Shown here: positions 46,478-61,021 of the stretch, in pieces
Numbering within the stretch: position 1 is the stretch's first letter
Layout of the letters: each line of letters opens with the position of its first letter
DNA from: a virus
Length of the DNA stretch: 64,000 nucleotides
Direction: 5' to 3' (one strand)
IMG/VR virus record: IMGVR_UViG_3300020156_000026
Coordinates: 1-64,000 of that record
Notes under the pieces: generated by a model
What the model saw: only the letters and a program-made list of their open reading frames with translations
Database searches by the model: none
What the model was told of the DNA's origin: nothing
Made by a program: the position numbers and the translations under genes

Positions 46478-46741
46478 TCAAATGTCATCATCTGCGTCAC
46501 CTGATTGTTCAGGATCATATGTTTTGTATGCAGAAATGAAACGATTTGCTCGGAATGGAGTATCCATAGTATCAAATCTGTGAATACCAAATAGCCTTAC
46601 ACATAAATTATTTTGTCCTGTGTAGTGATCAACAAAGTGTCCTAACCACCTTATTTGATATATTTGATCTTCGATCAACTCATCCTTAATTCCAGAGTTG
46701 TCGATACAAGTAATCCAATCCCCGATCTTAAATGTCGTCAT
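46478..46741 (-). CDS. tag-family protein 1 (beta-barrel head)
   Basis: 87 aa from an ATG embedded in the tag codons of the preceding gene. Head starts MTTFKIGDWITCIDNSG, with the GDx(I/V) strand pattern of SH3-like barrels. Tail TYDPEQSGDADDDI. Last tag gene of the cluster. Function unknown. Confidence 0.75.
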   Translation of the reverse strand: MTTFKIGDWITCIDNSGIKDELIEDQIYQIRWLGHFVDHYTGQNNLCVRLFGIHRFDTMDTPFRANRFISAYKTYDPEQSGDADDDI

Positions 46742-46982
46742 CTGTGTCACCATTTTGTTCAGGTGAGTATTCGACAGTTACATGAGTGATATCACGCTGG
46801 AAAACGTATACATCTTGACTCCAAGTGGTGATATCATCTCTTTTAACATTAAAGATATTAAACTCAGGATTTGATTTTCTCTCTTCAACCAAATCAGTTA
46901 TCACACCAAATACAGGGGGAGTACTATTGGGCCAACTGCTTGGATGCCATCTGATCCAATCTCCAACTTTAAATGTCCTCAT
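46728..46982 (-). CDS. tag-family protein 2 (SH3-like head)
   Basis: 84 aa, MRTFKVGDWIRWHPSSW... head with GVITDLVEE strand, tail YSPEQNGDTDDDI. Its ATG is formed by the GATGAG of the upstream tag, giving a 14-base overlap. The start is nearly the same as protein 1 (M-T/R-TFK-V/I-GDWI), showing recent duplication. Confidence 0.78.
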   Translation of the reverse strand: MRTFKVGDWIRWHPSSWPNSTPPVFGVITDLVEERKSNPEFNIFNVKRDDITTWSQDVYVFQRDITHVTVEYSPEQNGDTDDDI

Positions 46983-47430
46983 CAGTATCCCCATTCTGTT
47001 CAGGTGAATAGGATTTGACACTTATTTTAAGAAACTCCTTCTTAACCCACCTACCAGAAGTCTCAATCATTTTAGTGGTTGTTCCATCCCAATCATTCTC
47101 TTCTTCTTGAAAATATTCAGGAAGATAAGTAGTGGAAGAGTATCCACCATCGTCAGCGAATTGAATTCGTTGAGGTTTCTGCCATTCAAAAGCCTTCTTC
47201 GGAGGTTTTCCGTTTGTGTCGTAATATTCAAAGTGTTGAAGATAAACACCGTATATCTTATTACGGAAAGTGACCTCTTCATCCGTATCTTCGTCGTACT
47301 TATAGTCTTCAAAATCATTGATAGCAACTACAATACCACGTCCACGGCATTTAAGATTTTTCTTGTCAAGGCGGTGAAACTCTTCAAATTCTACGAAAGT
47401 TCCGAGGGGGAATTCTTCAAATGTCGTCAT
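46969..47430 (-). CDS. tag-family protein 3 (larger head)
   Basis: 153 aa, MTTFEEFPLGTFVEFEEFHR..., central GRGIVVAINDFEDY barrel-like strand, then an insertion. Tail YSPEQNGDTDEDI. Start lies inside the upstream tag. Confidence 0.75.
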   Translation of the reverse strand: MTTFEEFPLGTFVEFEEFHRLDKKNLKCRGRGIVVAINDFEDYKYDEDTDEEVTFRNKIYGVYLQHFEYYDTNGKPPKKAFEWQKPQRIQFADDGGYSSTTYLPEYFQEEENDWDGTTTKMIETSGRWVKKEFLKISVKSYSPEQNGDTDEDI

Positions 47431-47728
47431 CCTCATCTCCGGGCTGATCTTTATAATATTGTACAGGATCAAATAGTGATTTTACTCGATCACAATCGAC
47501 CCTAAAAGAAGGGTTAAATTTGAATGCATTATCCACTTCTCGCCTTAACGAGTATTCTCTAACAGGAAATGGACGGTTGAAAATATCATTCAAAAAGATA
47601 TTCCAAGTTGAGTAATCGTGGTAATGACATATAACTCGGTAAATAATATCTGATCGACCATCAACTATCACTTTAGTGTGTAGTGGATATACTACAGGCT
47701 TCTTTTTCTTCTTAAATATCTTCATCAT
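47417..47728 (-). CDS. tag-family protein 4 (divergent tag)
   Basis: 103 aa, MMKIFKKKKKPVVYPLHTKV, then VDGRSDIIYRVI. Tail YYKDQPGDEDDDI keeps only the GD-acidic-DDI end. Start preceded by GGCGGAGCTA. The 25 bases before the start resemble those before tag protein 13. Confidence 0.7.
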   Translation of the reverse strand: MMKIFKKKKKPVVYPLHTKVIVDGRSDIIYRVICHYHDYSTWNIFLNDIFNRPFPVREYSLRREVDNAFKFNPSFRVDCDRVKSLFDPVQYYKDQPGDEDDDI

Positions 47729-47752
47729 TAGCTCCGCCAATTCCAGATGCGA

Positions 47753-48058
47753 CTAGATGTCGTCATCAGTATCCCCATTCTGTGATGGGTCATAAGCCCT
47801 AATACCCGGTAGAAGATTTCGACTGCGTCTAGGGACAAGAACACTTTGCGGACAATGTTGACTTGCTCCACCCAGTCCTTGTCTATAAATATGACGGCCA
47901 CAAGTCCAGTGGTATCTGGAAGAGCAATCATCATCAACTTTTACAACCCAATCACCGTCATTATACCAATACGTACCTACGATTTCACCCGTAATCTTAT
48001 AGGCCTTTCCGTGATTACGGTTTGTATATTGGATGCGATCTCCAATTTGAAATGCCAT
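47753..48058 (-). CDS. tag-family protein 5 (SH3-like head)
   Basis: 101 aa. MAFQIGDRIQYTNRNHGKAY, KITGEIVGTYWYNDGDWVVK is a textbook small beta-barrel pattern. Tail YDPSQNGDTDDDI. Follows the cyclotransferase-like gene. Confidence 0.78.
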   Translation of the reverse strand: MAFQIGDRIQYTNRNHGKAYKITGEIVGTYWYNDGDWVVKVDDDCSSRYHWTCGRHIYRQGLGGASQHCPQSVLVPRRSRNLLPGIRAYDPSQNGDTDDDI

Positions 48059-48072
48059 TTCTTATATACCTC

Positions 48073-48669
48073 TTAAAAATAGTAGGCTTCTAAACCACTT
48101 GGATATCGAATTCTGCTTGCATTTTCAGACCTATCGCCATAGAGGGCTTGATCCATATAAAAATTTATATCGACCGTGTACATCCATGCCTTGACATGTT
48201 TGCCCTTTGCTTGTTGATCAAAGTCAACGAAATGAAGCTCACGATTAACACCTTGAGTGTTACCTTCATGCTTATCAATCTTAGTCAACAAACGAAGAGG
48301 GACACCATAGATATCTCCCTCTACTGCACGAAGATCATTTTCAGAGAACACATGGTTAATATCTCTCCAAAGACTTCTGTCCTTCTTGGGAAGTTGGAAC
48401 AGGAGAGGTTCAGGACGAGAACCAAACCCCGGCTCATACTCCAACGTCTTCATGATGAAGTCATCTTTCCAAGAGATGCCCTTACCATACCAGTTAGCAC
48501 CTTCAAGAAGATGATTTTGTGCATGAGCCCTCCTTAGATTGCCAGTAACAAAGATAATGAACTCATCTGTGTTACATCTATTCAAATCTTGGAAATCAGG
48601 GGTGTACTCATTACACCGTTCAAGTACTTCCCAAGGATTGTAATCAAGCGGCTTCCGCGATACGGCCAT
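48073..48669 (-). CDS. gamma-glutamylcyclotransferase-fold protein (large)
   Basis: 198 aa from ATG 48669. FIIFVTGNLRRAHAQNHLL corresponds to the YGTLxxG loop of the GGCT/AIG2 family, and AVEGDIYGVPLRLLTKIDKH to the conserved V(K/R)GE(V/I)Y strand with LDxxEG. The usual catalytic Glu position is Asp (EGDIYG). Such enzymes cyclise gamma-glutamyl amides to pyroglutamate and could remove what amidoligases add. Overlaps the amidotransferase stop. Confidence 0.65.
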   Translation of the reverse strand: MAVSRKPLDYNPWEVLERCNEYTPDFQDLNRCNTDEFIIFVTGNLRRAHAQNHLLEGANWYGKGISWKDDFIMKTLEYEPGFGSRPEPLLFQLPKKDRSLWRDINHVFSENDLRAVEGDIYGVPLRLLTKIDKHEGNTQGVNRELHFVDFDQQAKGKHVKAWMYTVDINFYMDQALYGDRSENASRIRYPSGLEAYYF

Positions 48670-49708
48670 TCTTATCTTCCTTTGCGATCTGTTGCAGACG
48701 TGCCTGTGCCTTATCCTTCGTCTTCTGAAGGAAAGCAATATGAACAGACTGCTTCTTGATAACTTCAGCCATATGCTGGATCAATGCACCAGCAGTGAAC
48801 TCACCCTCATTGGCAATCCAACTGCACCATTCGTCATAGGTCAAGGCGGAGAACTTGGCCACGTCTTTAGGGTCGTCCAAATCCCAACGATCCACAACAT
48901 CAGTAACCGCCTTAAGGATACGGGGGTCCTTCGACGTATTGGCACCGTTCCACACCTTGAGCGGACTAGTGGAGGTAGTATTCCCCCCTGTATTCCCTCC
49001 AGTGTTCGAAGAGTGGAGAAAAGGGGCATTCTTCCGATCTTCCGCCTCCTTTGCCTTACGAGCCTCTTCACGACGATTGTGTTCAGGCCCACGACTTACC
49101 CTTGTAATATATTCAGTCGTAGAGATCCAAATCTTAGGGGCATTTTCATCGTCTTGCTTGTATTCAGACCAGCCTGACCCAAACCGCATGACAGGAAGGT
49201 CATCAGCAATCAGAAGACCCTTCGAGTTGTATGTCCAATGCTTCTCAAGAATAAGCTTCCAGAACTCAGCATCGGTGTAATCACCCCGACCATGTTCCCC
49301 TTCCCAACGAAGAAGTCCCGGCTGAAGGATCTTTTCACAGAACTCAAGGGTATCTGATTTCCCTTCGGTCCCATATGTACCGTAACTGGACAATGTACCG
49401 TTGTGGCAGAACCAAACATTACGCTTACTAGAGTTATAAGCATTGAACGGTTGGGTGTTCTGCTCACTCGTCCCACCCCTAGTGCTATAACGGACGTGAA
49501 GAACACGTTCAATGTCCTTATTAGCTTCAAGGAGAGTCCAGATTTCTTCGGGATCATTACCCTTTTCATCCAACTTCTTAATCACTTGAATCCGTCCATT
49601 CCCGTCTTTCAGGATCAAACCATAGCCATGCCAATTATTCCAAACGGCATTGTACAAATGGTCCTTGTCGGGCATAGCACCAGGGGTGAAGTGGAAAATC
49701 GTGCACAA
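48644..49708 (-). CDS. class II glutamine amidotransferase (GATase 1)
   Basis: 354 aa Ntn-hydrolase. TTG start followed by Cys (MCTIFHFTPG): the Cys becomes the N-terminal nucleophile after Met removal. VRYSTRGGTSEQNTQPF, FCHNGTLSS and KSDTLEF give glutamine-binding Arg, Asn/Gly and Asp. No synthetase domain; residues ~225-255 are a Gly/Asn/Thr linker and ~70 further residues are unassigned. Would release ammonia from glutamine for a partner ligase. Confidence 0.87.
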   Translation of the reverse strand: MCTIFHFTPGAMPDKDHLYNAVWNNWHGYGLILKDGNGRIQVIKKLDEKGNDPEEIWTLLEANKDIERVLHVRYSTRGGTSEQNTQPFNAYNSSKRNVWFCHNGTLSSYGTYGTEGKSDTLEFCEKILQPGLLRWEGEHGRGDYTDAEFWKLILEKHWTYNSKGLLIADDLPVMRFGSGWSEYKQDDENAPKIWISTTEYITRVSRGPEHNRREEARKAKEAEDRKNAPFLHSSNTGGNTGGNTTSTSPLKVWNGANTSKDPRILKAVTDVVDRWDLDDPKDVAKFSALTYDEWCSWIANEGEFTAGALIQHMAEVIKKQSVHIAFLQKTKDKAQARLQQIAKEDKNGRIAEAA

Positions 49709-49737: not shown

Positions 49738-49977
49738 CTAAATGTCTTCATCAGTATCACCCGACTGTTCAGGTGAATACTTGACAATAATTCGTTCGAG
49801 TGCATTGGGTTCAACTAGCCAGTCAAAATCATGTTCTCTAGCTCGGTCATCCCTTACTCTTACAGCAGTCTTACCCTCCATTCCAGTGACTATAACTATA
49901 TCACCAGTTTTCAATGGTGCCGATGAGGGACGATCTTCAATAACCCTTACTTGTTCACCAGGTTCAAATATCTTCAT
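49738..49977 (-). CDS. tag-family protein 6 (SH3-like head)
   Basis: 79 aa, the shortest intact family member. MKIFEPGEQVRVIEDRP, KTGDIVIVTGMEGKTAVRV shows a compact barrel. Tail YSPEQSGDTDEDI. Starts within the tag of protein 7. Upstream of GATase 1. Confidence 0.8.
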   Translation of the reverse strand: MKIFEPGEQVRVIEDRPSSAPLKTGDIVIVTGMEGKTAVRVRDDRAREHDFDWLVEPNALERIIVKYSPEQSGDTDEDI

Positions 49978-50227
49978 CTATGTCACCATTCTGATCAGGT
50001 GAATAAGGTTTGATTACCTGATGGGGTTTCCACCATTGTTCATCACTATTCCAATGCTGAAGTTTTCCAACTGGATAAGAATTGGGCGCATTAGTCTCGA
50101 TACATTCACCCCATGCGGGATATAAAGAATGTTTATGAAACTTTACGATAATAATGGTGGAGCCTTTGTTAGCCCCAGGAGCTGGAGTATCACTCCCTCC
50201 CCCACACCATTTGTAGATACCTTCCAC
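49964..50227 (-). CDS. tag-family protein 7
   Basis: 87 aa, GTG start overlapping the ATP-grasp stop (TAGTG). Head MEGIYKWCGGGSDTPAPG..., TIIIVKFHKHSLYPAWG. Tail YSPDQNGDIDEDI. Head less obviously barrel-like. Confidence 0.72.
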   Translation of the reverse strand: MEGIYKWCGGGSDTPAPGANKGSTIIIVKFHKHSLYPAWGECIETNAPNSYPVGKLQHWNSDEQWWKPHQVIKPYSPDQNGDIDEDI

Positions 50228-51015
50228 TAGATCCTCCCAAAGGCATTAGCATAGTTGGTAACAGTAGTACCTACAAGACCCGGAGCCGTGTTGACTTCAA
50301 GTACGAATGCCTGTGACTCACGCTCATTGTAGATTACATCCGCTGCACCAAAGTCAAGACCAAGTGCATTTACTGCTGCAACACCAGCATCAAGAACAGA
50401 CTGTGGGGGAGTACGACCATCGTTACGTACAAAGACGAAACCATTGGCAAGGTTACGTACCATCCAATTGACATCTTCCTGACCACGAAATTCCTCACGG
50501 AGGCCCTTCCGCTGTACGTCAATTACCTGATTGCGCAGGACATGCACACGATATTCATCCTTCTTCTTTTTGTACTTGACATAAAGATTAGCACGAACGT
50601 CCCAAGTATCTCCCTGTTCAGGGTCCATGATGACAATACCACGACCAGAATGTCCACGAAGGACAGTACGAGCCATGACTGTTTCATCAGCTTCAAGCCA
50701 ACGATGAGCTTCGGCGATATCAGTGGTAAATTCCGGAATAGGAACACCAGCAGCTTGAAAAGCACGAAATGCCTGAAGCTTATCAGATGCCACATCAACA
50801 CGTTCAGGATGATTAAGAACGCGGCAGTTCAACAAGGTTTCCGGTGCACTCTCACGAACCTTCTGAAGACCTGCACCCCAATTGATGATAGTTTTATCAG
50901 GCTTTCCACGGAAGTTAGAACCATGGTGCTTGATGCGGGGAACACTAAGGGCACGAGCCAGTTCCTTAGAACCTTCGGAATGCTGATTGTATGCGAACAT
51001 TGCAGTAATAGACAT
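50227..51015 (-). CDS. ATP-grasp ligase
   Basis: 262 aa from ATG 51015 (GGAG nine bases upstream; in-frame ATGs at 51036 and 51042 also possible). ATP-grasp features: RTVLRGHSGRGIVIMD phosphate loop, YVKYKKKKDEYRVHVL, and the metal-binding end AADVIYNE...FVLEVNTAPGL. Resembles RimK/D-Ala-D-Ala ligase-type carboxylate-amine ligases that join an amino group to an ATP-activated carboxylate. Substrate unknown. Confidence 0.88.
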   Translation of the reverse strand: MSITAMFAYNQHSEGSKELARALSVPRIKHHGSNFRGKPDKTIINWGAGLQKVRESAPETLLNCRVLNHPERVDVASDKLQAFRAFQAAGVPIPEFTTDIAEAHRWLEADETVMARTVLRGHSGRGIVIMDPEQGDTWDVRANLYVKYKKKKDEYRVHVLRNQVIDVQRKGLREEFRGQEDVNWMVRNLANGFVFVRNDGRTPPQSVLDAGVAAVNALGLDFGAADVIYNERESQAFVLEVNTAPGLVGTTVTNYANAFGRI

Positions 51016-51016
51016 T

Positions 51017-51337
51017 TCAAATATCTCCGTCTTCATCGCCATTCTGTTCAGGCGAATACTTTGTTAACTTGTAGAGCTTTTCAATTTTATGTCGAGATAC
51101 TACCGATTTATACCACTCATGGGCTCCACCCGGTTCATCTTTATCTCGGTCGAGATAATTAAACCCGTCCACTCTTACTCTTATTTGCCAGTCACGAGAA
51201 TTAGTAATTACGGAAACCACCTCTCCTTTGACAATGCCATCTTCCGGAATGGGATTAATCAATGAACGGTTTGATTTTATATCCCAAAATATACTATTAA
51301 GGTTTAGGATATCTCCGACTTGGAATTCAGATGTCAT
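51017..51337 (-). CDS. tag-family protein 8 (SH3-like head)
   Basis: 106 aa, MTSEFQVGDILNLNSIFW..., GIVKGEVVSVITNSRDWQ barrel strands. Tail YSPEQNGDEDGDI. GAGGG before the ATG. Immediately precedes the ATP-grasp gene, whose first codons overlap the tag. Confidence 0.78.
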   Translation of the reverse strand: MTSEFQVGDILNLNSIFWDIKSNRSLINPIPEDGIVKGEVVSVITNSRDWQIRVRVDGFNYLDRDKDEPGGAHEWYKSVVSRHKIEKLYKLTKYSPEQNGDEDGDI

Positions 51338-51366
51338 ATTTGCCCTCGCAAATTTCAAGATATCCT

Positions 51367-51702
51367 TCAGATATCATCATCTTCGTCACCATTTTGATCA
51401 GGTGAATAGGGTTTATGCAGAAGGCTTAACTTATTTTCTGGGAACCAATACCCATAAGAATAGTTCTTCAACCTCCTATTTATACTATCACCAGTAAAGT
51501 ATTCACTTATGTACTTCATACATGTGTCAGACAGATAGAGATAATGATGAAAATGACTACTCCCATTGTCGAGAAGTACTCCAAAAGGGTGTGCACTATA
51601 TGCTGGATCTTCCATTTCAGAGATAGCAACAATAGTGCCAGTATACTCTTTATGAGAACCCATATATGGCTTACATACTACACGATCACCAAGATTAAAC
51701 AT
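51367..51702 (-). CDS. tag-family protein 9 (SH3-like head)
   Basis: 111 aa, MFNLGDRVVCKPYMGSHKEY, TGTIVAISEME. Tail KPYSPDQNGDEDDDI. ATG lies in the last codons of the amidoligase gene (GCAGATGTTTAA), so it is translationally coupled to it. Confidence 0.78.
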   Translation of the reverse strand: MFNLGDRVVCKPYMGSHKEYTGTIVAISEMEDPAYSAHPFGVLLDNGSSHFHHYLYLSDTCMKYISEYFTGDSINRRLKNYSYGYWFPENKLSLLHKPYSPDQNGDEDDDI

Positions 51703-52729
51703 CTGCTGTTGCCTCAATAGTACGCACATTATTATTCCGAAGATGATACATCTCCGAGATAACAGTACGTTCATGTTCCGAAACTACATCAAAAGGAGAA
51801 CCAAACTTCTCAATAGAAAGTTCATCGAGAGGTTTCTTGAGCTTTTCCTTATAGATTGGCTTGATCTTGAGAATACCAAACTTCTTCCAATCGGTAGTGA
51901 TGGAAGCAAACTTGGCAGCATACGTGAGATTTACCTTGCAAAGATTTTCCGTTTCCTTCCCCTGCTTCAATACATTTGCATGTTCTTGGAACACAAGATC
52001 AACAAAAGCATTAGCACCAAGGCGCTTATACTCAAGGATGATCTTAACAGGATCAAGGTTAGGACGCTTTGCATACTCCTTCATCTTCAGAAGGATTTCA
52101 GCCCACTGAAAGATGATACGTTTGTCAGTCTCACCACGGAAAGAACGTACCTCTGCTGTCCCAAGAGTGGTAAGATTTGCCATATTAAGCGCAGCATACT
52201 TGCAACGTTCTGATGACAACCCAAGTCTGCCAAACATTCTCTTGTTGACCATCTTGAGAAGGTTCTCAAACTGAGTTACTGCACCCTCTGCATCCATCAT
52301 CGGGAGACAAAACAAGTTAGACAGACGATCAGGACCACTATACCGAATGAGAAGATTCTCCACGATGGCATAGGTTGTCATGAAATTGACCAAGCTAAGG
52401 AAAGTCTCATTCAAGAAGTTCAGATGAACGTGAACCGAAGTAGAGATACTATCCTTGCGGAACTCGTACGTCTTGTTTACGCCATCAAACTCATCGAGGG
52501 CTAGTGACAATCCCTTCAAGTCGAGAGGCTCCTTGAGAATGTATTCAACCCCGTAATCACGAAGAGATCCATCCTTCTTGGCCACCCAATATTTCAATCG
52601 GGGGTATTCATACCTCTTACTGCTATCCACTTCAGTTTCAATTTCGACACCAAAGTCACCAGTGTATCGCTTACCGCCGAACTTACCAGTTTGCTTGAAG
52701 ATGTCGTAAATATTCGACAGTTCTTTCAT
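51695..52729 (-). CDS. COOH-NH2 amidoligase (GCS/GS-like superfamily)
   Basis: 344 aa. GDFGVEIETEVD is the strand-1 metal site, SISTSVHVHLNF the central strand with catalytic His, and KYAALNMANLTTLGTAEVRS with FRG the nucleotide/metal site. This is the pattern of Amidoligase_2-type proteins related to glutamate-cysteine ligase. They join amines to carboxylates of peptides or metabolites using ATP. The partner substrate is unknown. Confidence 0.87.
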   Translation of the reverse strand: MKELSNIYDIFKQTGKFGGKRYTGDFGVEIETEVDSSKRYEYPRLKYWVAKKDGSLRDYGVEYILKEPLDLKGLSLALDEFDGVNKTYEFRKDSISTSVHVHLNFLNETFLSLVNFMTTYAIVENLLIRYSGPDRLSNLFCLPMMDAEGAVTQFENLLKMVNKRMFGRLGLSSERCKYAALNMANLTTLGTAEVRSFRGETDKRIIFQWAEILLKMKEYAKRPNLDPVKIILEYKRLGANAFVDLVFQEHANVLKQGKETENLCKVNLTYAAKFASITTDWKKFGILKIKPIYKEKLKKPLDELSIEKFGSPFDVVSEHERTVISEMYHLRNNNVRTIEATADV

Positions 52730-52730: not shown

Positions 52731-53345
52731 TTATACCTCGACTACAGTCCAACCAGGGACTTCCTCAATCACATCCTTATAGATGAAAGAGAGTTCACTC
52801 TTGGGAATGTTGATCGTAGTGCTACCCACACGCATAGTTCCAACTTCTTCTTCCTTGACAAAGATAGAATAGTTAGCACCTACGCGCTTGAGAGCCACAT
52901 TACGTGATACAGCAGCAGATGCCCATCCACCTTTGATAAGCATTTCTTGTGCAGATACCACAGTTGGATACTTGTTCATCACACAATCAACCAATCCTTG
53001 GCACTGTTGAAGACTACCAAAGTTGATCGAACCCTCTTCACCAAGAGTTTTCTGTGTGAGATAGCTGATTTCAACACCTTGCTTGAACCGACGGAGAGGT
53101 TCACGCTTAAGATATACAGCCAACTTCTTTCGGCCTGCAAAATTCACATAGCCGAGAGGAATGGAACTAATATCTAGATCAGCATCATCCGGTTCCACAC
53201 GTCGGATGAGTTCTCCCTTGACCAAATCAACTAGACCAATAGTACCAGTTGAATCCACCTCTGCAATAAACGGAGTACCCTTATGACGGATAATCGTATG
53301 GTGCAGACGTGCACGAATGTCATCACCTTTATACTTATTGCGCAT
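52731..53345 (-). CDS. hypothetical protein inside amidoligase cluster, 204 aa
   Basis: MRNKYKGDDIRARLHHTIIR..., two alpha/beta segments and a beta-rich end (FVKEEEVGTMRVGSTTINIP). Lies between the amidoligase and a tag gene, with short spacing. No family recognised; likely a dedicated partner of the pathway. Confidence 0.7.
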   Translation of the reverse strand: MRNKYKGDDIRARLHHTIIRHKGTPFIAEVDSTGTIGLVDLVKGELIRRVEPDDADLDISSIPLGYVNFAGRKKLAVYLKREPLRRFKQGVEISYLTQKTLGEEGSINFGSLQQCQGLVDCVMNKYPTVVSAQEMLIKGGWASAAVSRNVALKRVGANYSIFVKEEEVGTMRVGSTTINIPKSELSFIYKDVIEEVPGWTVVEV

Positions 53346-53354: not shown

Positions 53355-53684
53355 TTAAATATCCTCATCCGTATCGCCATTCTGTTCAGGCGAGTATGGT
53401 TTTGTTTTAGCCTTTATATAAATTTTATGCGTCTTACGGCTAATATGAGTTCCAGCACCTGTTGGTATATGATTCCACGGATAATCCGAAAATCTTGCCC
53501 AAACTCTATTCTCTCCATGAAGTTTCGATATCATGGCTTCTGCGGAGTTATGAGTCACATATCCATAACGAATACGTGAAAGATCACCAGTATGCCATGG
53601 ATCTCTTACATAGAGGATTTCATCCCCTTCTTTAAGTTCAACGGATTTGTCGAGGGGGACATAACCTTCTGGAATTTTAACCAT
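53355..53684 (-). CDS. tag-family protein 10
   Basis: 109 aa, MVKIPEGYVPLDKSVELKEG, DEILYVRDPWHTG barrel-like start. Tail KPYSPEQNGDTDEDI. Begins five bases after the type-2 amidoligase stop. Its tag is followed at once by the start of the 204-aa gene. Confidence 0.77.
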   Translation of the reverse strand: MVKIPEGYVPLDKSVELKEGDEILYVRDPWHTGDLSRIRYGYVTHNSAEAMISKLHGENRVWARFSDYPWNHIPTGAGTHISRKTHKIYIKAKTKPYSPEQNGDTDEDI

Positions 53685-53688
53685 AGGA

Positions 53689-54396
53689 TTACATTCCCGT
53701 AATCTCTTGAAGGGTAGTACGGACCTCATTGAACATCTTCCGTCGAAGCTTTTCTTCACTCACCCACACATTAGAAGGGGCACGAAGTTCTACTCCATAC
53801 TTCTTGGGACGGAAGGAACCACTGTGGCCATAATACCTCAACCGCTCCTGCTCATCTTGGGTATTGGGGGAGAAGGATAACAGGTGTGCATTATAGAACC
53901 CCTGCGCAATATAGAGGCAATCCTCGAAGTGGTCTCGAACAGTAGGATCATCAACGTTAGTCCAACCAATATGGACATGGCCAGCCGCAGTACGAATGGG
54001 ACGATCTTCCAGACGCATGATGGGGTTTTCATTCACTTCCCCATGAACATTAAAGTCCGGATCACATCCAAGCACCTTCGCCTGATCAGGTACGCTCGAC
54101 CAAACACGTTCAGAGAACTTCGCCAGAGGTACAAAACGAAGAATGAGGTCTTTGTCAACCTTTTTCACCATTTCATCCATCTGTTTCAACACAGTTTCAA
54201 TGTTCCGATTGAACTGATCTTCTGTTTCAGCAGGATCAATGTTGAACTCAGCAGCTACACCATCCGGCTGAACTGCGCCACACTCTACCTGAAACGGAGA
54301 TTTCTTCGACCCAGGAATAATATCGTGAGCAGAGATAAAAGTCCCTGCCTTGTCAACAATAAAAAGTTCCGGATCAGCACCCAAAAGAATTGCCAT
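53689..54396 (-). CDS. phiEco32-like amidoligase-type 2 protein
   Basis: 235 aa. GADPELFIVDK, VQPDGVAAEFNIDPAETEDQ, GCDPDFNVHGEVNENP, TAAGHVHIGW and YYGHSGSFRPKKYGVELRAP match the COOH-NH2 ligase family first noted in phiEco32-like phages. Predicted ATP-dependent amide bond formation. Starts directly after the amidotransferase stop (TAAATG). Confidence 0.88.
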   Translation of the reverse strand: MAILLGADPELFIVDKAGTFISAHDIIPGSKKSPFQVECGAVQPDGVAAEFNIDPAETEDQFNRNIETVLKQMDEMVKKVDKDLILRFVPLAKFSERVWSSVPDQAKVLGCDPDFNVHGEVNENPIMRLEDRPIRTAAGHVHIGWTNVDDPTVRDHFEDCLYIAQGFYNAHLLSFSPNTQDEQERLRYYGHSGSFRPKKYGVELRAPSNVWVSEEKLRRKMFNEVRTTLQEITGM

Positions 54397-55500
54397 TTAT
54401 GCATTTTCCTTTAAAACGTTAAGTGGATCACACTCTTCGCAATAATGCTTCTGCATTGAAGAGTCCCACCGAGGATAACCTTTAAGACCCCGACGAGAAT
54501 AATTTGTCTCAATCAGGTTCATTGTCTTAGCTCCACACGCACATTTGGAGAAAAATGACTTAATCTTCCCGTTTTCTTGTGATTTCGGAAAGTCAACTAC
54601 ATTATTTTTATTGGCAGGAGTAATTTTCTCTTGCTTTAATGGATAAGAGTACTCAGGAGCAGTCCAACCAAAGGCATGTTGATCCTCTTTTGACTTAACC
54701 TGAGGTACAGACGTAGGCTTAAAAGGGGCCTCGTCCTTCTTTTCCTCCTTCTTCTCCAACTCTGGCTTGAAAAGGTGAGTTACCTTCATACAATCCAGCG
54801 CAGCCTTCTTACAGGAAATCTCCGAAGGGACAACCTTTAAAAGTTTATGGGGAAGAAGATTGAAATACTTGGCATTAACACCATGCCTGTTCAAGACGAA
54901 CTTGAGCATTTCCTTTTCAGATGCCCAATACATCACATTACGATCTTCCAAAAAAGCAAGAGCTAGTGTTCGCTTCTCATTTCGACCGAAATATAATGCA
55001 CCATCAGTGCGATCATAGATAACAACTGCATATGCACTGTCGTCATTCAACTCACTGATGACAGGAATGATCCCACGATTGTTCATATCGCGGAACATAA
55101 GTTCACTGTCCGTCTTATCCTTGTCCTGATACTTCTGATCCTTCAGTGTACCATTATGGGCACCAACAAAACGTTCAACAATGAAGGGATGAGAGTTAGC
55201 ACTACAGATACGACCACGAGTAGCAGCACGAACGTGCATCATGATGATATCACAGGATACGTTATTCAACACATCCTTATATGCTTTGTCCCAATCAATC
55301 TCATCCAACATAGTACTGAAATTTTCAGAAGTTTTGTAGATGAAAGAGTTGTTAAACTTTTGGTTTCGACGAGCAGAAGAAATTTGAAAAACTCCTGCAC
55401 CATCTCTTCCCCGAATTTGCGACAAGATGCCGAGGTTACGGGCGATAGACAAGTCTTGGGCATTAATTCCTGGGCCAGCTAACCCTGCGTGTCCACACAA
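54397..55500 (-). CDS. class II glutamine amidotransferase (GATase 2) with zinc-ribbon tail
   Basis: 367 aa. TTG start then Cys (MCGHAGLAG). MMHVRAATRGRICSANSHPF, GAHNGTL and KTDSELMF form the glutamine site. The Ntn domain (~240 aa) is followed by a Lys/Glu/Pro linker and a C-terminal zinc ribbon (KCACGAK...YCEECD). No synthetase domain, so ammonia must pass to a separate ligase, probably the type-2 amidoligase encoded next. Confidence 0.88.
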   Translation of the reverse strand: MCGHAGLAGPGINAQDLSIARNLGILSQIRGRDGAGVFQISSARRNQKFNNSFIYKTSENFSTMLDEIDWDKAYKDVLNNVSCDIIMMHVRAATRGRICSANSHPFIVERFVGAHNGTLKDQKYQDKDKTDSELMFRDMNNRGIIPVISELNDDSAYAVVIYDRTDGALYFGRNEKRTLALAFLEDRNVMYWASEKEMLKFVLNRHGVNAKYFNLLPHKLLKVVPSEISCKKAALDCMKVTHLFKPELEKKEEKKDEAPFKPTSVPQVKSKEDQHAFGWTAPEYSYPLKQEKITPANKNNVVDFPKSQENGKIKSFFSKCACGAKTMNLIETNYSRRGLKGYPRWDSSMQKHYCEECDPLNVLKENA

Positions 55501-55515: not shown

Positions 55516-55809
55516 TTAAATGTCATCATCAGTATCACCCGATTGTTCAGGTGAATACGGTCTTACGACCTGTTTGAATCTCCAAGGGTAAGCATTAGGG
55601 ATTACATCACCAGTTTTAAGTTCAGTTACAGGGACTGTCTGGTATTTATGACCATACCTTTCTGTTTCTCCAAAACTTAATTGCTCCCATTGATGATCTG
55701 TATAGGATGGTCCTGAAAGATAACCTTCGTGTGGAATGTCAATCTCATAAAGCTCACCCACGATCAGACGACCGCTATATGTACTCACTGCTTCAACTAT
55801 TACTTTCAT
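55516..55809 (-). CDS. tag-family protein 11 (SH3-like head)
   Basis: 97 aa, MKVIVEAVSTYSGRLIVGEL, YEIDIPHEGYL, tail RPYSPEQSGDTDDDI. ATG overlaps the end of the class I GATase-like gene. Precedes GATase 2. Confidence 0.78.
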   Translation of the reverse strand: MKVIVEAVSTYSGRLIVGELYEIDIPHEGYLSGPSYTDHQWEQLSFGETERYGHKYQTVPVTELKTGDVIPNAYPWRFKQVVRPYSPEQSGDTDDDI

Positions 55810-56411
55810 CGGAGCAACCCCACAAGAGCAAGGAAATGAGACTTCTGGCTGTAATCCCTAGCCCTTTCAGGACGAGGTTGATAACAAAGACAATTGGTGT
55901 CGTCATACCAAACGATCTCTGATTCAAACTTAGGAAATACCACGGGGTTAATACCTTCACGATAGAAGGCTTTCCCTACATTTTCAGAGTACCCCAAGAT
56001 TTCAGCCTTGTCAGTTGGAATCATCATCTGATGGTGAGTGCTATCTACACGCATCAAACTATGGTCCAAGGTATTATAGATGTAGTGATCACCTACATGC
56101 CCACTCACATGCTGATAGAGCTTACCTCCATTCATCACATTAAGGAACTGAGCCCCTCGTCCAATACCCACCTTCAACTGCTTCTTACGAGTTGCCCGCC
56201 AGACCTCACAGTCCAACTTATCCCTCATAAGATTTAGGTTGACAGTTCTGTGAGCTTTCGTCTCACCATAAAGTTCAGGATTAACATCCTCACCTCCAGG
56301 AAAAACTACAATATCAGCGTTCTCTGCACGAGAAATGATACTGAAATTCTCATCAGAAAATAGTTTAGCGACTTCTCGGTCGTGAGTTGAAAACCCAACT
56401 GTAATTGACAT
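55806..56411 (-). CDS. class I glutamine amidotransferase-like pseudoenzyme
   Basis: 201 aa of the PuuD/peptidase C26 type: DIVVFPGGEDVNPELYGE, nucleophile-elbow region KVGIGRGAQFLNVMNGGKLY and STHHQMM. Family members have Cys in GxCRGxQ and a His in QxHPE. Here these are Gly (codon 56160-56162) and Arg (CYQPRPE), so hydrolysis is not expected while the fold is kept. May bind a gamma-glutamyl substrate or act as a scaffold. Confidence 0.82.
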   Translation of the reverse strand: MSITVGFSTHDREVAKLFSDENFSIISRAENADIVVFPGGEDVNPELYGETKAHRTVNLNLMRDKLDCEVWRATRKKQLKVGIGRGAQFLNVMNGGKLYQHVSGHVGDHYIYNTLDHSLMRVDSTHHQMMIPTDKAEILGYSENVGKAFYREGINPVVFPKFESEIVWYDDTNCLCYQPRPERARDYSQKSHFLALVGLLR

Positions 56412-56420: not shown

Positions 56421-56699
56421 TCATATGTCATCGTCAGTGTTACCGTTTTGATCAGGTGAATACGGTTTAATCGAATCAACTTTTTTGAGAAAATCCATCC
56501 GACATAGATATCCATCCGGATTATAACGGCCATCGTAACTTAATAGGTATTCTCTTATTTCAGGGGTTTCCCATCTGATCACCGCCATATCCGAAAACTC
56601 TTTTATTGCGAGGATCACCCCCTCGCCGGAGATACGAGACGAAAAAGCCCCATGATAAGAGATTCGATCCCCTGTCTTTAAACGAGTTCGTTCTTCCAA
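56421..56699 (-). CDS. tag-family protein 12 (SH3-like head)
   Basis: 92 aa from a TTG at 56699 with GGAG eight bases upstream (a longer TTG start at 56744 is possible). MEERTRLKTGDRISYHGAFS, EGVILAIKEFSDMAVIRW. Tail KPYSPDQNGNTDDDI, the only copy with Asn in the first Asp position. A six-codon frame opened in its tag ends on the next gene's ATG. Confidence 0.74.
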   Translation of the reverse strand: MEERTRLKTGDRISYHGAFSSRISGEGVILAIKEFSDMAVIRWETPEIREYLLSYDGRYNPDGYLCRMDFLKKVDSIKPYSPDQNGNTDDDI

Positions 56700-57328
56700 C
56701 GTTCCTGCTCCATACGGATCTGACGGAGGGAAAGGTTCAACCAAGCATCACCACGGTTCTGCCATGTGTACAGGTCAATACCAAACTTCATCTTGATATG
56801 GCGACGAGCCACTTCAGGAGAAACGAGAAGAACTTCACCAACAGGGTTGTCCAAGATAGCATTCTGCTGAACGATCTTATTGACCTTGAGGTTCTTGATA
56901 GCTTCGAACTTCTGACGAGCAGGGTCAGGCTTCTTCGGAGGATCGATCTTGTCCCGAAGTTCAATCAACTCCTTGTGGAATGCGTTAAGGCTCTCTTCAT
57001 ACTTGGTAGGATTAGTAGCCCACAAGGCAAGATCACCAGTCTCCTTATGGCGATGTGCGTCGTTATCCTTCTTAGTGCCAACGTAAACTCTCTCAAATCC
57101 ACACTTCGGCATGAACTCGTCAAGACCATAGTTGTCGATCTGATTCTGTGTAGTGAACGCATGAAGGATAGCAAAGTCACGCTTGAACCCTCCCTTACGA
57201 AGATCTTCCACCATTCCAAGTTGAGCCCGAAGTTTCAGCTTAGGGTCTTTGTCATTGAGTCCTTGACGGGACCAACCAGTGATCAAAGAGGCAGTGCAAG
57301 TAGTCGGTACAGAATTATGTTGGATCAT
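56678..57328 (-). CDS. hypothetical protein in tag/amidoligase cluster, 216 aa
   Basis: MIQHNSVPTTCTASLITGWS..., with FAILHAFTTQNQIDNYGLDE, MPKCGFERVYVGTKK, then HKETGDLALWA, which looks like a compact alpha/beta fold, then a helical charged part. An acetyltransferase-like fold is conceivable but not shown. ATG has GGAAGTAAT upstream. Confidence 0.7.
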   Translation of the reverse strand: MIQHNSVPTTCTASLITGWSRQGLNDKDPKLKLRAQLGMVEDLRKGGFKRDFAILHAFTTQNQIDNYGLDEFMPKCGFERVYVGTKKDNDAHRHKETGDLALWATNPTKYEESLNAFHKELIELRDKIDPPKKPDPARQKFEAIKNLKVNKIVQQNAILDNPVGEVLLVSPEVARRHIKMKFGIDLYTWQNRGDAWLNLSLRQIRMEQERWKNELV

Positions 57329-57339
57329 ATTACTTCCTT

Positions 57340-57705
57340 TCAAATATCAAGGTCTGCATCATCACCGGATTGTTCCGGAGAATAAGGTTTGATTAGTTTT
57401 CGGTAGATGTAGAGAGGAAATCTTTCTTGGCTGATAAGACAATGAGAACCTCCCCTCGATTCATCAATTGACACCCTCTCTGCTGACTCCAATGAAAAAG
57501 TTTCATTATCTGCGAAGCTGAAGATAGCATAAATTCGCTGATCATCACATTGACTAAGTGTCTTTTTAGTCACCTTTCCAAAATGTTTAAATCCGGGAGC
57601 ATAACTTCTAGTAAACTCCCCTTCATGTGTCCAAAAGATAATATCTCCTGGAGCTATTTGGTTTTTAGAGAGGATACGTTCGTATTCACCATCATATATC
57701 ATCAT
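57340..57705 (-). CDS. tag-family protein 13
   Basis: 121 aa, MMIYDGEYERILSKNQIAPG, DIIFWTHEGEF. Tail KPYSPEQSGDDADLDI carries one extra residue and lacks the internal ATG codon overlap. GTGGAGCTA before the start; in-frame GTG at 57729 is an alternative. Confidence 0.74.
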   Translation of the reverse strand: MMIYDGEYERILSKNQIAPGDIIFWTHEGEFTRSYAPGFKHFGKVTKKTLSQCDDQRIYAIFSFADNETFSLESAERVSIDESRGGSHCLISQERFPLYIYRKLIKPYSPEQSGDDADLDI

Positions 57706-57728
57706 TAGCTCCACTAATTCCAATGACA

Positions 57729-58019
57729 CTATATGTCATCATCTTGATCCCCGTTCTGATCAGGTGAATAATGAGTAGTAGCAATCTTCACAAGAGCCAT
57801 AATACCAAAACGAGTATCATTGGGGTTTTTCTCTATGGATCTATCTATGGCTTCATGTAGTGCTATACCGTCATCCCAATCGATGAAATAACTATCACCA
57901 TAAATTACTTCACGGACTGTACCCTTATGAATCCCTTTAATTTTAAGAAAAGGGTTAAAGAATTGTATTCGATCACCAACACTCAAACGTTGGCGAGATT
58001 GTTCATCCCAAGAAATCAT
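57729..58019 (-). CDS. tag-family protein 14, first gene after the regulatory gap
   Basis: 96 aa. MISWDEQSRQRLSVGDRIQF..., HKGTVREVIYGDSYFIDWDD is a clear SH3-like pattern. Tail HYSPDQNGDQDDDI. GAGGG lies seven bases before the ATG. It heads the main run of tag and amidoligase genes. Confidence 0.8.
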   Translation of the reverse strand: MISWDEQSRQRLSVGDRIQFFNPFLKIKGIHKGTVREVIYGDSYFIDWDDGIALHEAIDRSIEKNPNDTRFGIMALVKIATTHYSPDQNGDQDDDI

Positions 58020-58934: not shown

Positions 58935-59324
58935 TTACCTACTCCAATAGTGTTCATTACCATCAATGTGGCAATGTTCCATTCCTACAAAATTACGCCA
59001 GCAGTTCTTGCCACCGACGTACATGCCCACTTCTCGTCCCCCTCGTGTTACCACGTTCTCACGTGTGTACATGTGGGGAACACCTTCAAGACCATCCAAA
59101 CGGGCTAGTGTACTTGCCGCCCGTTCATCCGTTAGGGGATCACCAATATCCCATACTTCACCACGCACAGCAGTGAGAGGGTTAGGATTAGCGACGGGGA
59201 AACCAGAATAATAAAGCTCGTAACCTTCGACAACATCTTCACCTACCAGTGTAGCTTGACCTGATGACAGGATACGATTGTTACCGTACCCCTGCTTCAA
59301 CGTTCCGTATACAAAAACCTGCAA
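58935..59324 (-). CDS. gamma-glutamylcyclotransferase (AIG2/GGCT family)
   Basis: 129 aa. MQVFVYGTLKQGYGNNRIL is the family's substrate loop, VRGEVWDIGD carries the catalytic Glu, and LARLDGLEGVPHMYTRENV the conserved LDxxEG. These enzymes release 5-oxoproline from gamma-glutamyl amines. Its presence near amidoligases suggests gamma-glutamyl linkages in the pathway. Confidence 0.9.
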   Translation of the reverse strand: MQVFVYGTLKQGYGNNRILSSGQATLVGEDVVEGYELYYSGFPVANPNPLTAVRGEVWDIGDPLTDERAASTLARLDGLEGVPHMYTRENVVTRGGREVGMYVGGKNCWRNFVGMEHCHIDGNEHYWSR

Positions 59325-59567
59325 TTAATTTACCTTTTCTCTTTTGATCGCCATACTAATCTTTTCAACTGGCTTGAATATAACTTCACAGAGGTAGAAT
59401 TCTGGAGCAGACAAAGAAAACTCTTCAAACTCATCTTCAGCATTACTTCTAGACCAATGGATGCCAGAAATGTCGTTTACTTCTTCTACACCTTCAGACT
59501 TTGGGTTAGTTTCGACAAGACAATAAAATCTACCTTCTGCATCAATAGTAATAGTTTTCTTTTTCAC
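59325..59567 (-). CDS. hypothetical protein, 80 aa
   Basis: MKKKTITIDAEGRFYCLVET..., beta-strand rich, mixed charge. Abuts the cyclotransferase start. No family recognised. Confidence 0.65.
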   Translation of the reverse strand: MKKKTITIDAEGRFYCLVETNPKSEGVEEVNDISGIHWSRSNAEDEFEEFSLSAPEFYLCEVIFKPVEKISMAIKREKVN

Positions 59568-59767
59568 AGCCGAAATTCCTGTGTGATGAGTGAAGCATGA
59601 TGTTCGCGCATATCCTCAAGGATACGAGAACCCTCGGGTAGTTCCCAAATACGGTCTGCTTGCCTCATAACTGCCCGTACAGAGGGTTTCTCATCCCTGC
59701 CGAAGGTAGACTGCTCCTGAGCAAAGATGCGCTTGTATAGCCTTCCATGACGTTCTGTGTATTTCAC
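59564..59767 (-). CDS. hypothetical basic protein, 67 aa
   Basis: GTG start in a GTGA overlap with the upstream gene. MKYTERHGRLYKRIFAQEQS..., helical. Overlaps the next start too. Confidence 0.6.
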   Translation of the reverse strand: MKYTERHGRLYKRIFAQEQSTFGRDEKPSVRAVMRQADRIWELPEGSRILEDMREHHASLITQEFRL

Positions 59768-59910
59768 CTCAACAACCCCTTTTTCTTGAGGGCTTTAATG
59801 ATCGCTTTAGCCTCTTGTTCCACAGAAGTGCGATCCCATTCACTTAGCCCAGCATGTCGGATAATAGTATCCGTGATTAAATCTAATACCTCTTGTTGAG
59901 GTTTTTTCAC
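59764..59910 (-). CDS. 48-aa helical protein
   Basis: GTG start overlapping the upstream TGA (GTGA). MKKPQQEVLDLITDTIIRHA, basic end ALKKKGLLR. Overlaps on both sides support it. Confidence 0.55.
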   Translation of the reverse strand: MKKPQQEVLDLITDTIIRHAGLSEWDRTSVEQEAKAIIKALKKKGLLR

Positions 59911-60278
59911 TTGATAATCCTCGCGTCAGTCGGAATATCATCAGTAAAAGTGATTTCCAACTTTCCGACGATCTGACTCTTGTAATAACGGGCAGCAACC
60001 TCAGAATCTTTTATTATTCCCCACCCTTCTTTCCAAGATCTTCCTCCGATAATAGTAGCTACCTTCTTCTCGATGATAGGCTCATGATATTCATGCCAAT
60101 TGACGCAACTTTTCATATCCCACAGAAGTTCTTGCCCGACACGAACAAAACTTGTTGGATCTGGCAGGACGGTGTAAGTAACCACCATCTTCTCATCGCC
60201 TACCCAGAGAACCTTTATAGTCCTCTTGGTTTCGTTATTTCTGTATTCCTTACCAACTTCAAATGTCACCTTCGTCAT
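59907..60278 (-). CDS. hypothetical protein, paralogue of the 62165 gene
   Basis: 123 aa from ATG 60278, which lies in an orphan tag remnant (60259-60285). MTKVTFEVGKEYRNNETKRT. Shares NW(H/K)EYH(E/P)P and a C-terminal (E/T)F(T)xD-TDA(R/K)(I/V)I pattern with the protein at 62165-62536. Beta-rich; function unknown. Confidence 0.7.
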   Translation of the reverse strand: MTKVTFEVGKEYRNNETKRTIKVLWVGDEKMVVTYTVLPDPTSFVRVGQELLWDMKSCVNWHEYHEPIIEKKVATIIGGRSWKEGWGIIKDSEVAARYYKSQIVGKLEITFTDDIPTDARIIK

Positions 60279-60285
60279 CCCCATT
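60259..60285 (-). repeat. orphan tag-coding remnant
   Basis: In a frame different from the surrounding gene, the minus strand reads NGDDEGDI followed by TGA, the last part of the shared tag, but no start or head precedes it (upstream TGA 36-38 bases away). It overlaps the start of the 59907-60278 gene exactly as intact tags overlap their downstream genes. Confidence 0.55.
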
Positions 60286-60305
60286 TGTTTCACAAATTCC
60301 AGTGT

Positions 60306-60569
60306 CTAGATGTCACTATCTAGATCACCCTCTTGTCCTGGCTCGTATGGTACGGAAGCCGTTGGATCTAGTTCATAATATCCACCCCAAGGAGGGGGTG
60401 CCCCCGGAATAGGGCAATGCGCATGTGGTACAGCAGTCAACGGGGTTGTTGCAGCACCAAGTTTATGGACTTCAAGTGCAGCACCCCACGACGTGACGGC
60501 AACACATTTGTACTTAGTACCAATTGTACTATGACCACGAAACCGATACCATCGTCCAACCTTAAACAC
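60306..60569 (-). CDS. tag-family protein 15 (divergent tag)
   Basis: 87 aa, GTG start. MFKVGRWYRFRGHSTIGTKY, KCVAVTSWGAALEVHKLG barrel pattern, Pro/Gly-rich insert. Tail VPYEPGQEGDLDSDI, the most diverged intact tag. Overlaps the stop of the 53-aa gene. Confidence 0.72.
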   Translation of the reverse strand: MFKVGRWYRFRGHSTIGTKYKCVAVTSWGAALEVHKLGAATTPLTAVPHAHCPIPGAPPPWGGYYELDPTASVPYEPGQEGDLDSDI

Positions 60570-60723
60570 TAAGAAGACCCTTCTTCATAGCCTTCAAAGT
60601 AGCTTCAGCAAGGTTCCCCAAATCTTCAGGGAAAGCACAGATCACTTTGCTCCCCTGTTTGATGACATGCTTCTTCACAAGAGTATTAAACTCAATTGTG
60701 TATTCGTCATTAGATGTCGTCAT
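60562..60723 (-). CDS. 53-aa protein starting inside the interrupted tag gene
   Basis: ATG at 60723 is made by the tag codons of the interrupted family member (GATGACGACATC). Product MTTSNDEYTIEFNTLVKKHV, basic end MKKGLLSV. No tag of its own. Confidence 0.6.
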   Translation of the reverse strand: MTTSNDEYTIEFNTLVKKHVIKQGSKVICAFPEDLGNLAEATLKAMKKGLLSV

Positions 60724-61021
60724 CTTGATCCCCATTCTGATCAGGTGAATAAGATTTCATCGGAAGGATTTGGTATATTCGGCCACCAGATTGCCTAAAT
60801 GTTTTGTAAGAATACTTATATCCACCGGGTCTTGTAGTCTTACCAAGAGTGCGAGAATAGGTATCATACCACATATCCACGCAGAGCTGATCACCATTTT
60901 ACCATAGATGGTGATAAAACCCCGGCCATTCGTTAAGATACCCCCAATATTCCCCATCATGAAGATCATGCAAGGACATTGCAACGAAGGGGAGATTGTG
61001 AACCTTTTCAAAGGTTATCAT
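60710..61021 (-). pseudogene. tag-family member 16 interrupted by an in-frame TAA
   Basis: ATGA overlap with the upstream gene sets the start (61021). Forty codons (MITFEKVHNLPFVAMSLHDL... ending YHHLW) are followed by TAA at 60899-60901, then the same frame continues for 62 codons (NGDQLCVDMWYDTYS...) to a perfect tag KSYSPDQNGDQDDDI. A tyrosine codon to TAA change would explain it; readthrough or sequencing error are alternatives. Confidence 0.7.

What the first reader, a model, noticed from the sequence alone, without database searches (positions are those of the whole stretch)
46478..60751. A shared C-terminal acidic peptide on fifteen intact small proteins
Fifteen intact leftward genes (stops at 46478, 46728, 46969, 47417, 47753, 49738, 49964, 51017, 51367, 53355, 55516, 56421, 57340, 57729, 60306) end in variants of KPYSPEQNGDTDDDI. 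Almost invariant are the Tyr, the Pro, GD, and the terminal acidic-Asp-Ile with a free carboxylate. Heads differ widely in sequence and length (79-153 aa). I know of no described family with this tail. A constant C-terminal peptide on diverse heads suggests one common recogniser.
Basis: seen in the sequence. Interest (0 to 1): 0.95.

Follow-up and report, generated by a model that had tools for sequence, protein, structure and literature searches.

The report
Phage-private C-terminal tails on small proteins
This virus of bacteria carries about sixteen small proteins that all end in the same short peptide; related viruses do the same with their own versions, which suggests a shared docking tag read by a virus-made partner that has not been identified.

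Summary
All 15 reported genes end in the tail (Y-x-P-x-Q-x-G-D-x-D-x-D-I); a 16th copy is at 60710 and a divergent one at 38247. Third codon positions differ more (0.53) than positions 1 and 2 (0.20, 0.21), so selection is on the peptide rather than on DNA.

The tailed genes are interleaved with a known phage amide-bond module: glutamine amidotransferases, ATP-grasp, Amidoligase_2, COOH-NH2 ligase, peptidase C26, gamma-glutamylcyclotransferases. Related phages carry tails too, but each genome has its own version: homologous heads mostly carry their own genome's tail. Other module phages have unrelated tails (DEDLYY, LENE, FKGN, LEELMEEYL, TSLEEYM). Two rhizobial phages differ clearly in tail, which favours a phage-encoded reader.

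Best reading: a genome-private docking tag that plugs interchangeable small proteins (many probably SH3-like) onto one phage-encoded partner, perhaps in this module. Reader and reaction are not shown. In phiM6 the tailed genes lie beside, not among, the core enzymes; many module-bearing phages show no tail; and a test that tails depend on the module was inconclusive once truncated contigs were dropped. My literature searches (open-licence papers only) found no description.

The parts
46478..46753 (-). tailed small protein, ...YDPEQSGDADDDI (start uncertain)
46728..47021 (-). tailed small protein, ...YSPEQNGDTDDDI (start uncertain)
46969..47472 (-). tailed small protein, ...YSPEQNGDTDEDI (start uncertain)
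47417..47740 (-). tailed small protein, ...YYKDQPGDEDDDI
47753..48058 (-). tailed small protein, ...YDPSQNGDTDDDI; SH3-like head in a predicted model
49738..49977 (-). tailed small protein, ...YSPEQSGDTDEDI
49964..50227 (-). tailed small protein, ...YSPDQNGDIDEDI
51017..51358 (-). tailed small protein, ...YSPEQNGDEDGDI
51367..51774 (-). tailed small protein, ...YSPDQNGDEDDDI
53355..53759 (-). tailed small protein, ...YSPEQNGDTDEDI (start uncertain)
55516..55809 (-). tailed small protein, ...YSPEQSGDTDDDI
56421..56744 (-). tailed small protein, ...YSPDQNGNTDDDI
57340..57729 (-). tailed small protein, ...YSPEQSGDDADLDI (one extra residue in the tail)
57729..58019 (-). tailed small protein, ...YSPDQNGDQDDDI
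60306..60569 (-). tailed small protein, ...YEPGQEGDLDSDI
60710..60880 (-). 16th tail, on a 56-aa ORF that looks frame-broken upstream (...YSPDQNGDQDDDI)
38247..38585 (-). divergent tail candidate (...APDVGDEEDDI) in the replication region; RHph_I3_11 has a tailed gene at the matching place
48073..48738 (-). gamma-glutamylcyclotransferase-like (GGACT) protein of the module
48644..49708 (-). class II glutamine amidotransferase
50227..51027 (-). ATP-grasp ligase (phrog_2599; relatives annotated ATP-grasp or RimK-like)
51695..52729 (-). Amidoligase_2 (PF12224)
52731..53345 (-). conserved module-region protein of unknown function (phrog_11055)
53689..54396 (-). COOH-NH2 ligase (phrog_3815; PF14395 below its cut-off)
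54397..55500 (-). class II glutamine amidotransferase
55806..56411 (-). peptidase C26 (class I glutamine amidotransferase-like)
56678..57343 (-). conserved module-region protein, no Pfam or PHROG match
58935..59324 (-). gamma-glutamylcyclotransferase (GGACT)

Best explanation
The tail is a genome-private docking peptide. The phage makes about sixteen small early-region proteins with differing heads (many probably SH3-like barrels) that all end in one peptide, read by one phage-encoded partner. The most likely partner is a component of the amide-ligase module whose genes are interleaved with them. The small proteins would then be interchangeable adaptors that bring that machine to different host or phage targets: the head picks the target and the tail plugs into the machine. 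SHOWN: the tails exist, are selected as protein, follow the genome more than the head, occur on more than one head type, and lie in or beside the module in several phage lineages with different tails.
For: Protein-level selection: codon positions 1/2/3 differ 0.20/0.21/0.53 in the window, 0.06/0.08/0.60 in L006, 0.28/0.17/0.60 in phiM6 and 0.22/0.00/0.48 in L128. Genome-private code: of 32 head-homologous pairs between genomes, 26 have tails less alike than the mean of other heads in the same genome; within-genome identity 0.727 is reached by 0 of 1000 label shuffles (maximum 0.543), and without phiM6 0.736 against a maximum of 0.649. Rhizobium phage RHph_I3_11 (YDPxQxGDxEDDI) and Sinorhizobium phage phiM6 (YKxDQEPxEDEExL) share module gene order and have rhizobial hosts, yet differ in the tail; L178 (YDPTQEPDDEDDI) is intermediate. 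A conserved host reader would not predict this. Tailed genes lie between core module enzymes in the window, RHph_I3_11, L021, CVT22, L100, L103 and L128, and between amidoligase and primase in L229. Other tails beside the module: L021 DEDLYY, CVT22 LENE, L100 ENE, L103 FKGN, L128 LEELMEEYL, L229 TSLEEYM. Differing heads share one tail within CVT22 and within L229. In 10 related genomes tail distance tracks each of 9 module-region proteins (Spearman 0.39-0.74) better than the one control, the slower primase (0.34) (exploratory).
Against: In phiM6 the 14 tailed genes flank the first cyclotransferase gene and stop before peptidase C26; none lies among the core enzymes. Module phages with no tail detected: PA11, RIO-1, T5S1, PAA2, phiEco32, ctwe8250, VPp1, and most of the 168 and 152 loci scanned (27 and 17 flagged; many are fragments or repeats of one contig). 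Dependence of the tail on the module is not shown: polymerase-recruited loci gave tails in 4 of 15 with module by blind criteria and 0 of 29 without (p = 0.010), but with at least 5 kb upstream 4 of 15 against 0 of 9 (p = 0.26) and with 7 kb 4 of 15 against 0 of 3 (p = 1). Primase-recruited loci gave 3 of 7 against 1 of 28 (p = 0.019), but the three are contigs already known to carry tails, of one clade. L229 has only a distant ATP-grasp, so ATP-grasp is a poor candidate reader. Some tailed genes lie among replication genes (38247; RHph_I3_11 32377-32676; L021; CVT22). Head homology has a slight effect too: 0.654 for homologous heads against 0.626 for other heads of the same genome pairs. The 13-mer comparison overstates the phiM6 difference, as its tail is one residue longer. 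No reader was identified.
Confidence: 0.4

Rival explanations
1. The tailed proteins are the module's substrates or carriers: the ligases build an amide bond on the tail (C-terminal carboxylate or acidic side chains), as amino-group carrier proteins or RimK substrates are modified.
For: The neighbouring enzymes are of amide-forming and gamma-glutamyl-removing types; the tails of the window clade and phiM6 are acidic and end flush with the C-terminus in all but a few copies.
Against: The tails share no chemical group beyond a C-terminus: FKGN tails have no acidic residue, and in L128 and some L103 genes variable residues follow the motif.
Confidence: 0.2
2. One reading: the tail sends the proteins to a protease, a chaperone, the replisome or the capsid.
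For: Some tailed genes lie among replication genes; in phiM6 none lies among the core enzymes; many module phages show no tail.
Against: Two phages of rhizobial hosts have clearly different tails, against a conserved host reader. A broad tail pattern found none in the structural regions of phiM6 (1-32000), RHph_I3_11 or the window, against capsid targeting.
Confidence: 0.23
3. There is no reader: the tailed proteins are a fast-diverging paralogous family whose C-terminus is kept for folding or by descent.
For: Many heads are detectably homologous, and one gives an SH3-like prediction.
Against: The tail follows the genome more than the head and sits on differing heads within one genome; the tail is less confidently placed than the barrel strands in the model (pLDDT about 66).
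Confidence: 0.11
4. The tail is a by-product of DNA: a repeated ribosome-binding site and start codon for the next gene, or a recent repeat.
For: Some tails overlap the next start; CVT22 LENE codons contain GGAG and vary little; L274 shows a nearly codon-identical repeat.
Against: Third-position variation in the window clade, phiM6 and L128. Tail carriage does not depend on a close downstream gene: with one, 16 of 45 (CVT22), 10 of 40 (RHph_I3_11) and 13 of 49 (phiM6) carry it; without, 2 of 10, 3 of 16 and 1 of 15 (Fisher p 0.47, 0.74, 0.16). In the window 9 of 16 tails end before the next start, by starts that I chose.
Confidence: 0.05

Closest known systems
Phage amidoligase / ATP-grasp / glutamine amidotransferase / COOH-NH2 ligase module (phiEco32, LUZ24-like and PA11 types; predicted by Iyer et al. 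2009, which was not held and is known here only through papers citing it)
   Same: The enzyme genes in and around the tailed genes belong to it. PMC6256558 notes 7 such ORFs in phiM6 and a proposed role in modifying host peptidoglycan.
   Different: The passages read mention no array of tailed small proteins, and several phages with the module show no tail.
T4 internal proteins with a shared capsid-targeting sequence (recalled)
   Same: Small, diverse, fast-changing phage proteins sharing one terminal peptide.
   Different: There the peptide is N-terminal and cut off in the prohead (recalled); here it is C-terminal and absent from the structural regions searched.
Bacterial SSB C-terminal acidic tip (recalled)
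   Same: A short acidic C-terminal peptide read by several partners.
   Different: The SSB tip needs a final pair such as PF (recalled); the window tail stops at D-I. Putative SSBs of RHph_I3_11 and phiM6, so called here by position and acidic end, finish in PW.
LysW-type amino-group carrier proteins with an ATP-grasp partner (recalled)
   Same: A small protein with an acidic C-terminus and an ATP-grasp ligase.
   Different: LysW ends in Glu within EDWGE (recalled); here the ends are Ile, Leu, Tyr, Glu, Lys, Met or variable.

Membership tests
Phage amidoligase module | Amidoligase_2 (PF12224) | tested here: met
   26.3 bits against a cut-off of 22; phrog_7469 E 9.7e-51
Phage amidoligase module | COOH-NH2 ligase type 2 | tested here: met
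   phrog_3815 E 7.9e-62; PF14395 only 20.1 bits against a cut-off of 25
Phage amidoligase module | ATP-grasp ligase | tested here: met
   phrog_2599 E 8.5e-83; no Pfam hit for the window protein; RimK hit for the CVT22 relative
Phage amidoligase module | Glutamine amidotransferase and gamma-glutamylcyclotransferase genes | tested here: met
   GATase_4 or GATase_6, Peptidase_C26 and GGACT above cut-off
Known family for the tailed proteins | Match in Pfam or PHROGs | tested here: not met
   16 window members: one PHROG match (E 0.0014) in one member; best Pfam E 0.033. An L128 tailed protein does match phrog_11307 (E 9.9e-13), function unknown
SH3-like barrel (head fold) | Five-strand barrel matched to solved SH3-like folds | tested here: inconclusive
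   Model pLDDT 68.7; best Foldseek E in PDB 0.077; best Z 6.2, CAP-Gly, then Tudor and others
SSB C-terminal tip mimic | Terminal hydrophobic pair such as PF after the acidic run (recalled) | tested here: not met
   All 16 window tails end D-I
Capsid-targeting sequence | N-terminal peptide on packaged proteins (recalled) | tested here: not met
   The tail is C-terminal and a broad pattern found none in the structural regions searched; packaging itself was not testable
Amino-group carrier protein | C-terminal Glu acceptor (recalled) | tested here: not met
   Window tails end in Ile, 16 of 16
Docking tag read by a module enzyme | Physical binding of the tail to a module protein | not testable with these tools
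   needs pull-down or a co-structure

The most novel reading that the evidence does not exclude
These phages run a one-machine, many-adaptors system: a phage-encoded amide-ligase machine is pointed at many targets by a swappable set of about 8-20 small proteins, each plugging in through a C-terminal password that is private to that phage and co-evolves with the machine, so that co-infecting relatives cannot use each other's adaptors.
Probability: 0.2. Interest if true: 0.95.

Novelty: categorically new. Interest (0 to 1): 0.85.

Why it matters
Relatives of the module's ATP-grasp occur in 310 of 50,697 phage records, and the papers I could read give no tested substrate for the module. Arrays of proteins sharing a genome-private tail give a direct handle: the peptide can be used as bait to find what reads it. 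If the tail is a docking code, it would be a clear case of a short peptide changing in step across many genes to follow one reader, and a ready set of matched tag and reader pairs.

Tried and rejected
Shine-Dalgarno or repeat origin: rejected for the window clade, phiM6 and L128 by third-position variation and the close-neighbour control; open for CVT22, L100 and L103, whose codons vary little. SSB mimicry and capsid targeting: judged unlikely. Prophage or host link: the genome-contig scan with the ATP-grasp alignment matched 195 stretches, none a relative. Polymerase-recruited control: significant at first, not once contigs without upstream sequence were dropped. In one search I counted L178 as tailed after reading its gene list by eye, which I did for no other module-positive locus of that set; one search gives the figures without it. 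L015 and L024 were flagged by clustering but not counted as tails. A literal 23-base pattern in the window's own record and a degenerate pattern close to the window's own tail in viral contigs found nothing; a wider one matched 14 contigs, one of them (L064) by chance in a stretch full of stops. Of the four records from that scan that are at least 30 kb long with two or more matches, 4 of 4 have the ATP-grasp. Of the nine shorter tailed ones 2 show ATP-grasp; the 22.8-kb one with 3 tails shows none of the three module genes sought. A second model (an L229 head) is too poor to use (pLDDT 54.6). The PF12224 search of five module-less records rang nowhere, controls included, so it shows nothing. 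Literature: listings (open-licence PubMed Central) and passages of four papers (PMC6256558 read as part 1 of 2, the whole body) showed no description of such tails; Iyer et al. 2009 is not held.
Full report
OBSERVATION. A sixteenth copy ends at 60710 on a 56-aa ORF whose upstream part seems to lie in another frame, and a divergent candidate ends at 38247. Over sixteen copies Y, Q, G, D(-4), D(-2) and I(-1) are invariant, P and D(-6) are 15 of 16, and position -3 is acidic in 13 of 16. The largest cluster of similar C-terminal 13-mers holds 16 window ORFs (14 of the fifteen, plus 60710 and 38247), against at most 2 for internal 13-mers of the same ORFs.

PROTEIN, NOT DNA. In the tail codons, pairwise differences at positions 1, 2 and 3 are 0.20, 0.21 and 0.53 in the window, 0.06, 0.08 and 0.60 in L006, and 0.28, 0.17 and 0.60 in phiM6. 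A tandem repeat met on the way (L274, KKASEK) shows the opposite: no third-position difference at all. Some tails overlap the start of the next gene, so a ribosome-binding site was a serious alternative. In three annotated phages, genes with a close downstream neighbour carry the tail in 16 of 45, 10 of 40 and 13 of 49 cases, genes without one in 2 of 10, 3 of 16 and 1 of 15 (Fisher p 0.47, 0.74, 0.16). In the window 9 of 16 tails end before the next start, by starts that I chose. For CVT22 (0.26, 0.13, 0.27), L100 and L103 the DNA-level reading stays open, since their codons vary little and those of CVT22 contain GGAG.

SURROUNDINGS. Between and beside the tailed genes lie two class II glutamine amidotransferases, a peptidase C26, Amidoligase_2 and two GGACT proteins, a COOH-NH2 ligase and an ATP-grasp ligase. 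PF14395 is below its cut-off in the window and the window ATP-grasp has no Pfam match; both assignments rest on PHROGs and on relatives. The window's tailed proteins have no useful family match: of 16 scanned, one PHROG match at E 0.0014 in one member, best Pfam E 0.033.

RELATIVES. Rhizobium phage RHph_I3_11 has the same module order with 14 tailed ORFs in its early region (13 are annotated genes) and one more among its replication genes. Sinorhizobium phage phiM6 has the same module order with 14 proteins ending in YKxDQEPxEDEExL; there the tailed genes lie around the first cyclotransferase gene, ahead of the core enzymes, and not among them. A broad pattern found no tail in phiM6 1-32000 and only the one replication-region gene in RHph_I3_11 28000-68071. 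L006, L007, L008 and L009 carry 15, 10, 14 and 19 tailed ORFs with their own versions; L138 and L145 carry more. L178, YDPTQEPDDEDDI, bridges the window tail and the phiM6 tail. Among 16 distinct homologues of tailed heads outside the query set, 15 carry a tail and one 53-aa ORF does not; several of these contigs had been recruited by the tail pattern, so the count leans in favour.

A PRIVATE CODE. With tails cut off, heads of different genomes are often homologous (72 inter-genome and 18 intra-genome pairs at E <= 0.01). Across 32 head-homologous pairs (E <= 1e-3, 45 aa or more) tail identity is 0.654, against 0.755 for other heads of the same genome and 0.626 for other heads of the same genome pair; in 26 of 32 the same-genome value is the higher. 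Within-genome tail identity, 0.727, is reached by 0 of 1000 label shuffles (maximum 0.543); without phiM6, whose tail is one residue longer and so misaligned in this test, it is 0.736 against 0.649. Synonymous sites differ widely, so recent gene conversion is a poor explanation (inference). Heads differ within a genome: in CVT22 both GD-type and WATH-type heads carry LENE, and in L229 eight small genes with differing heads, between amidoligase and primase, end in TSLEEYM or close variants with both TCN and AGY serine codons; a ninth ORF among them ends VDLASYL.

OTHER TAILS BESIDE THE SAME MODULE. L021: DEDLYY, 8 ORFs. CVT22, a cultured Citrobacter phage: 19 ORFs ending LENE or a close variant. 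L100: ENE or ANE; L103: FKGN, with extra residues after it in some; L128: LEELMEEYL followed by 2-5 variable residues on nine genes. The window head 47753 gives a five-strand model (pLDDT 68.7) whose best structural neighbours are CAP-Gly and Tudor domains (Z at most 6.2), in keeping with an SH3-like barrel but not conclusive.

WHAT COUNTS AGAINST. Several phages with the module show no tail, and so do most scanned loci, though many of these are fragments (27 of 168 and 17 of 152 flagged). So the module does not need the tail. Whether the tail needs the module is not settled: the polymerase-recruited control lost its significance when contigs lacking upstream sequence were dropped (4 of 15 against 0 of 9, p = 0.26), and the primase-recruited one (3 of 7 against 1 of 28, p = 0.019) rests on contigs of one clade already known to be tailed. 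L229 has only a distant ATP-grasp. One 22.8-kb contig with three tails shows none of the three module genes sought. Tailed genes also occur among replication genes in L021 and CVT22.

MECHANISM. A peptide kept alike on many different proteins within one genome, yet changed in step between genomes, is what one co-evolving reader predicts. Clearly different tails in phages of two rhizobial hosts point to a phage-encoded reader. Interleaving with one enzyme module in several lineages points to a component of that module, though phiM6 shows that the genes need not sit among the core enzymes. As tails such as FKGN and LEELMEEYL share no chemistry with DDI and need not be terminal, docking is more likely than covalent change of the tail. 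The adaptor role of the heads is inference.

NOVELTY. [quoted passage not shown] I found no description of genome-private tails on arrays of small proteins in the papers searchable here; this is a limited library, and the founding paper on the module was not available.

Noticed in passing
window 51695-52729 and nine related genomes: The amidoligase itself ends in D-[IVL] in 10 of 10 genomes of this clade, like the last two residues of the window tails; it may use the same pocket.
   Followed up: partly
window 60710-61021: The 16th tailed gene looks broken: the 56-aa ORF with the tail follows an ORF (60899-61021) in another frame.
   Followed up: no
L229 3922-7226: Eight tailed genes fill the stretch between amidoligase and primase, where the ATP-grasp usually sits; only a distant ATP-grasp is found in that record.
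   Followed up: partly
L021 record (G016 33252-33866): A second, distant ATP-grasp-like match lies near the module of this phage.
   Followed up: no
L274 5949-7587: Five small proteins in a tandem group, most with PRELSD-like stretches, end in KKASE[KR] with nearly identical codons; a recent repeat, no module found in this 9.5-kb contig.
   Followed up: yes
window 56678-57343: A 221-aa protein conserved in the module region of the clade has no Pfam or PHROG match, and its divergence tracks tail divergence best.
   Followed up: partly
L097 4378-4677 (RHph_I3_11 32377-32676): A tailed gene sits among the replication genes, at the same place as window 38247-38585, though the heads are barely alike.
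   Followed up: yes
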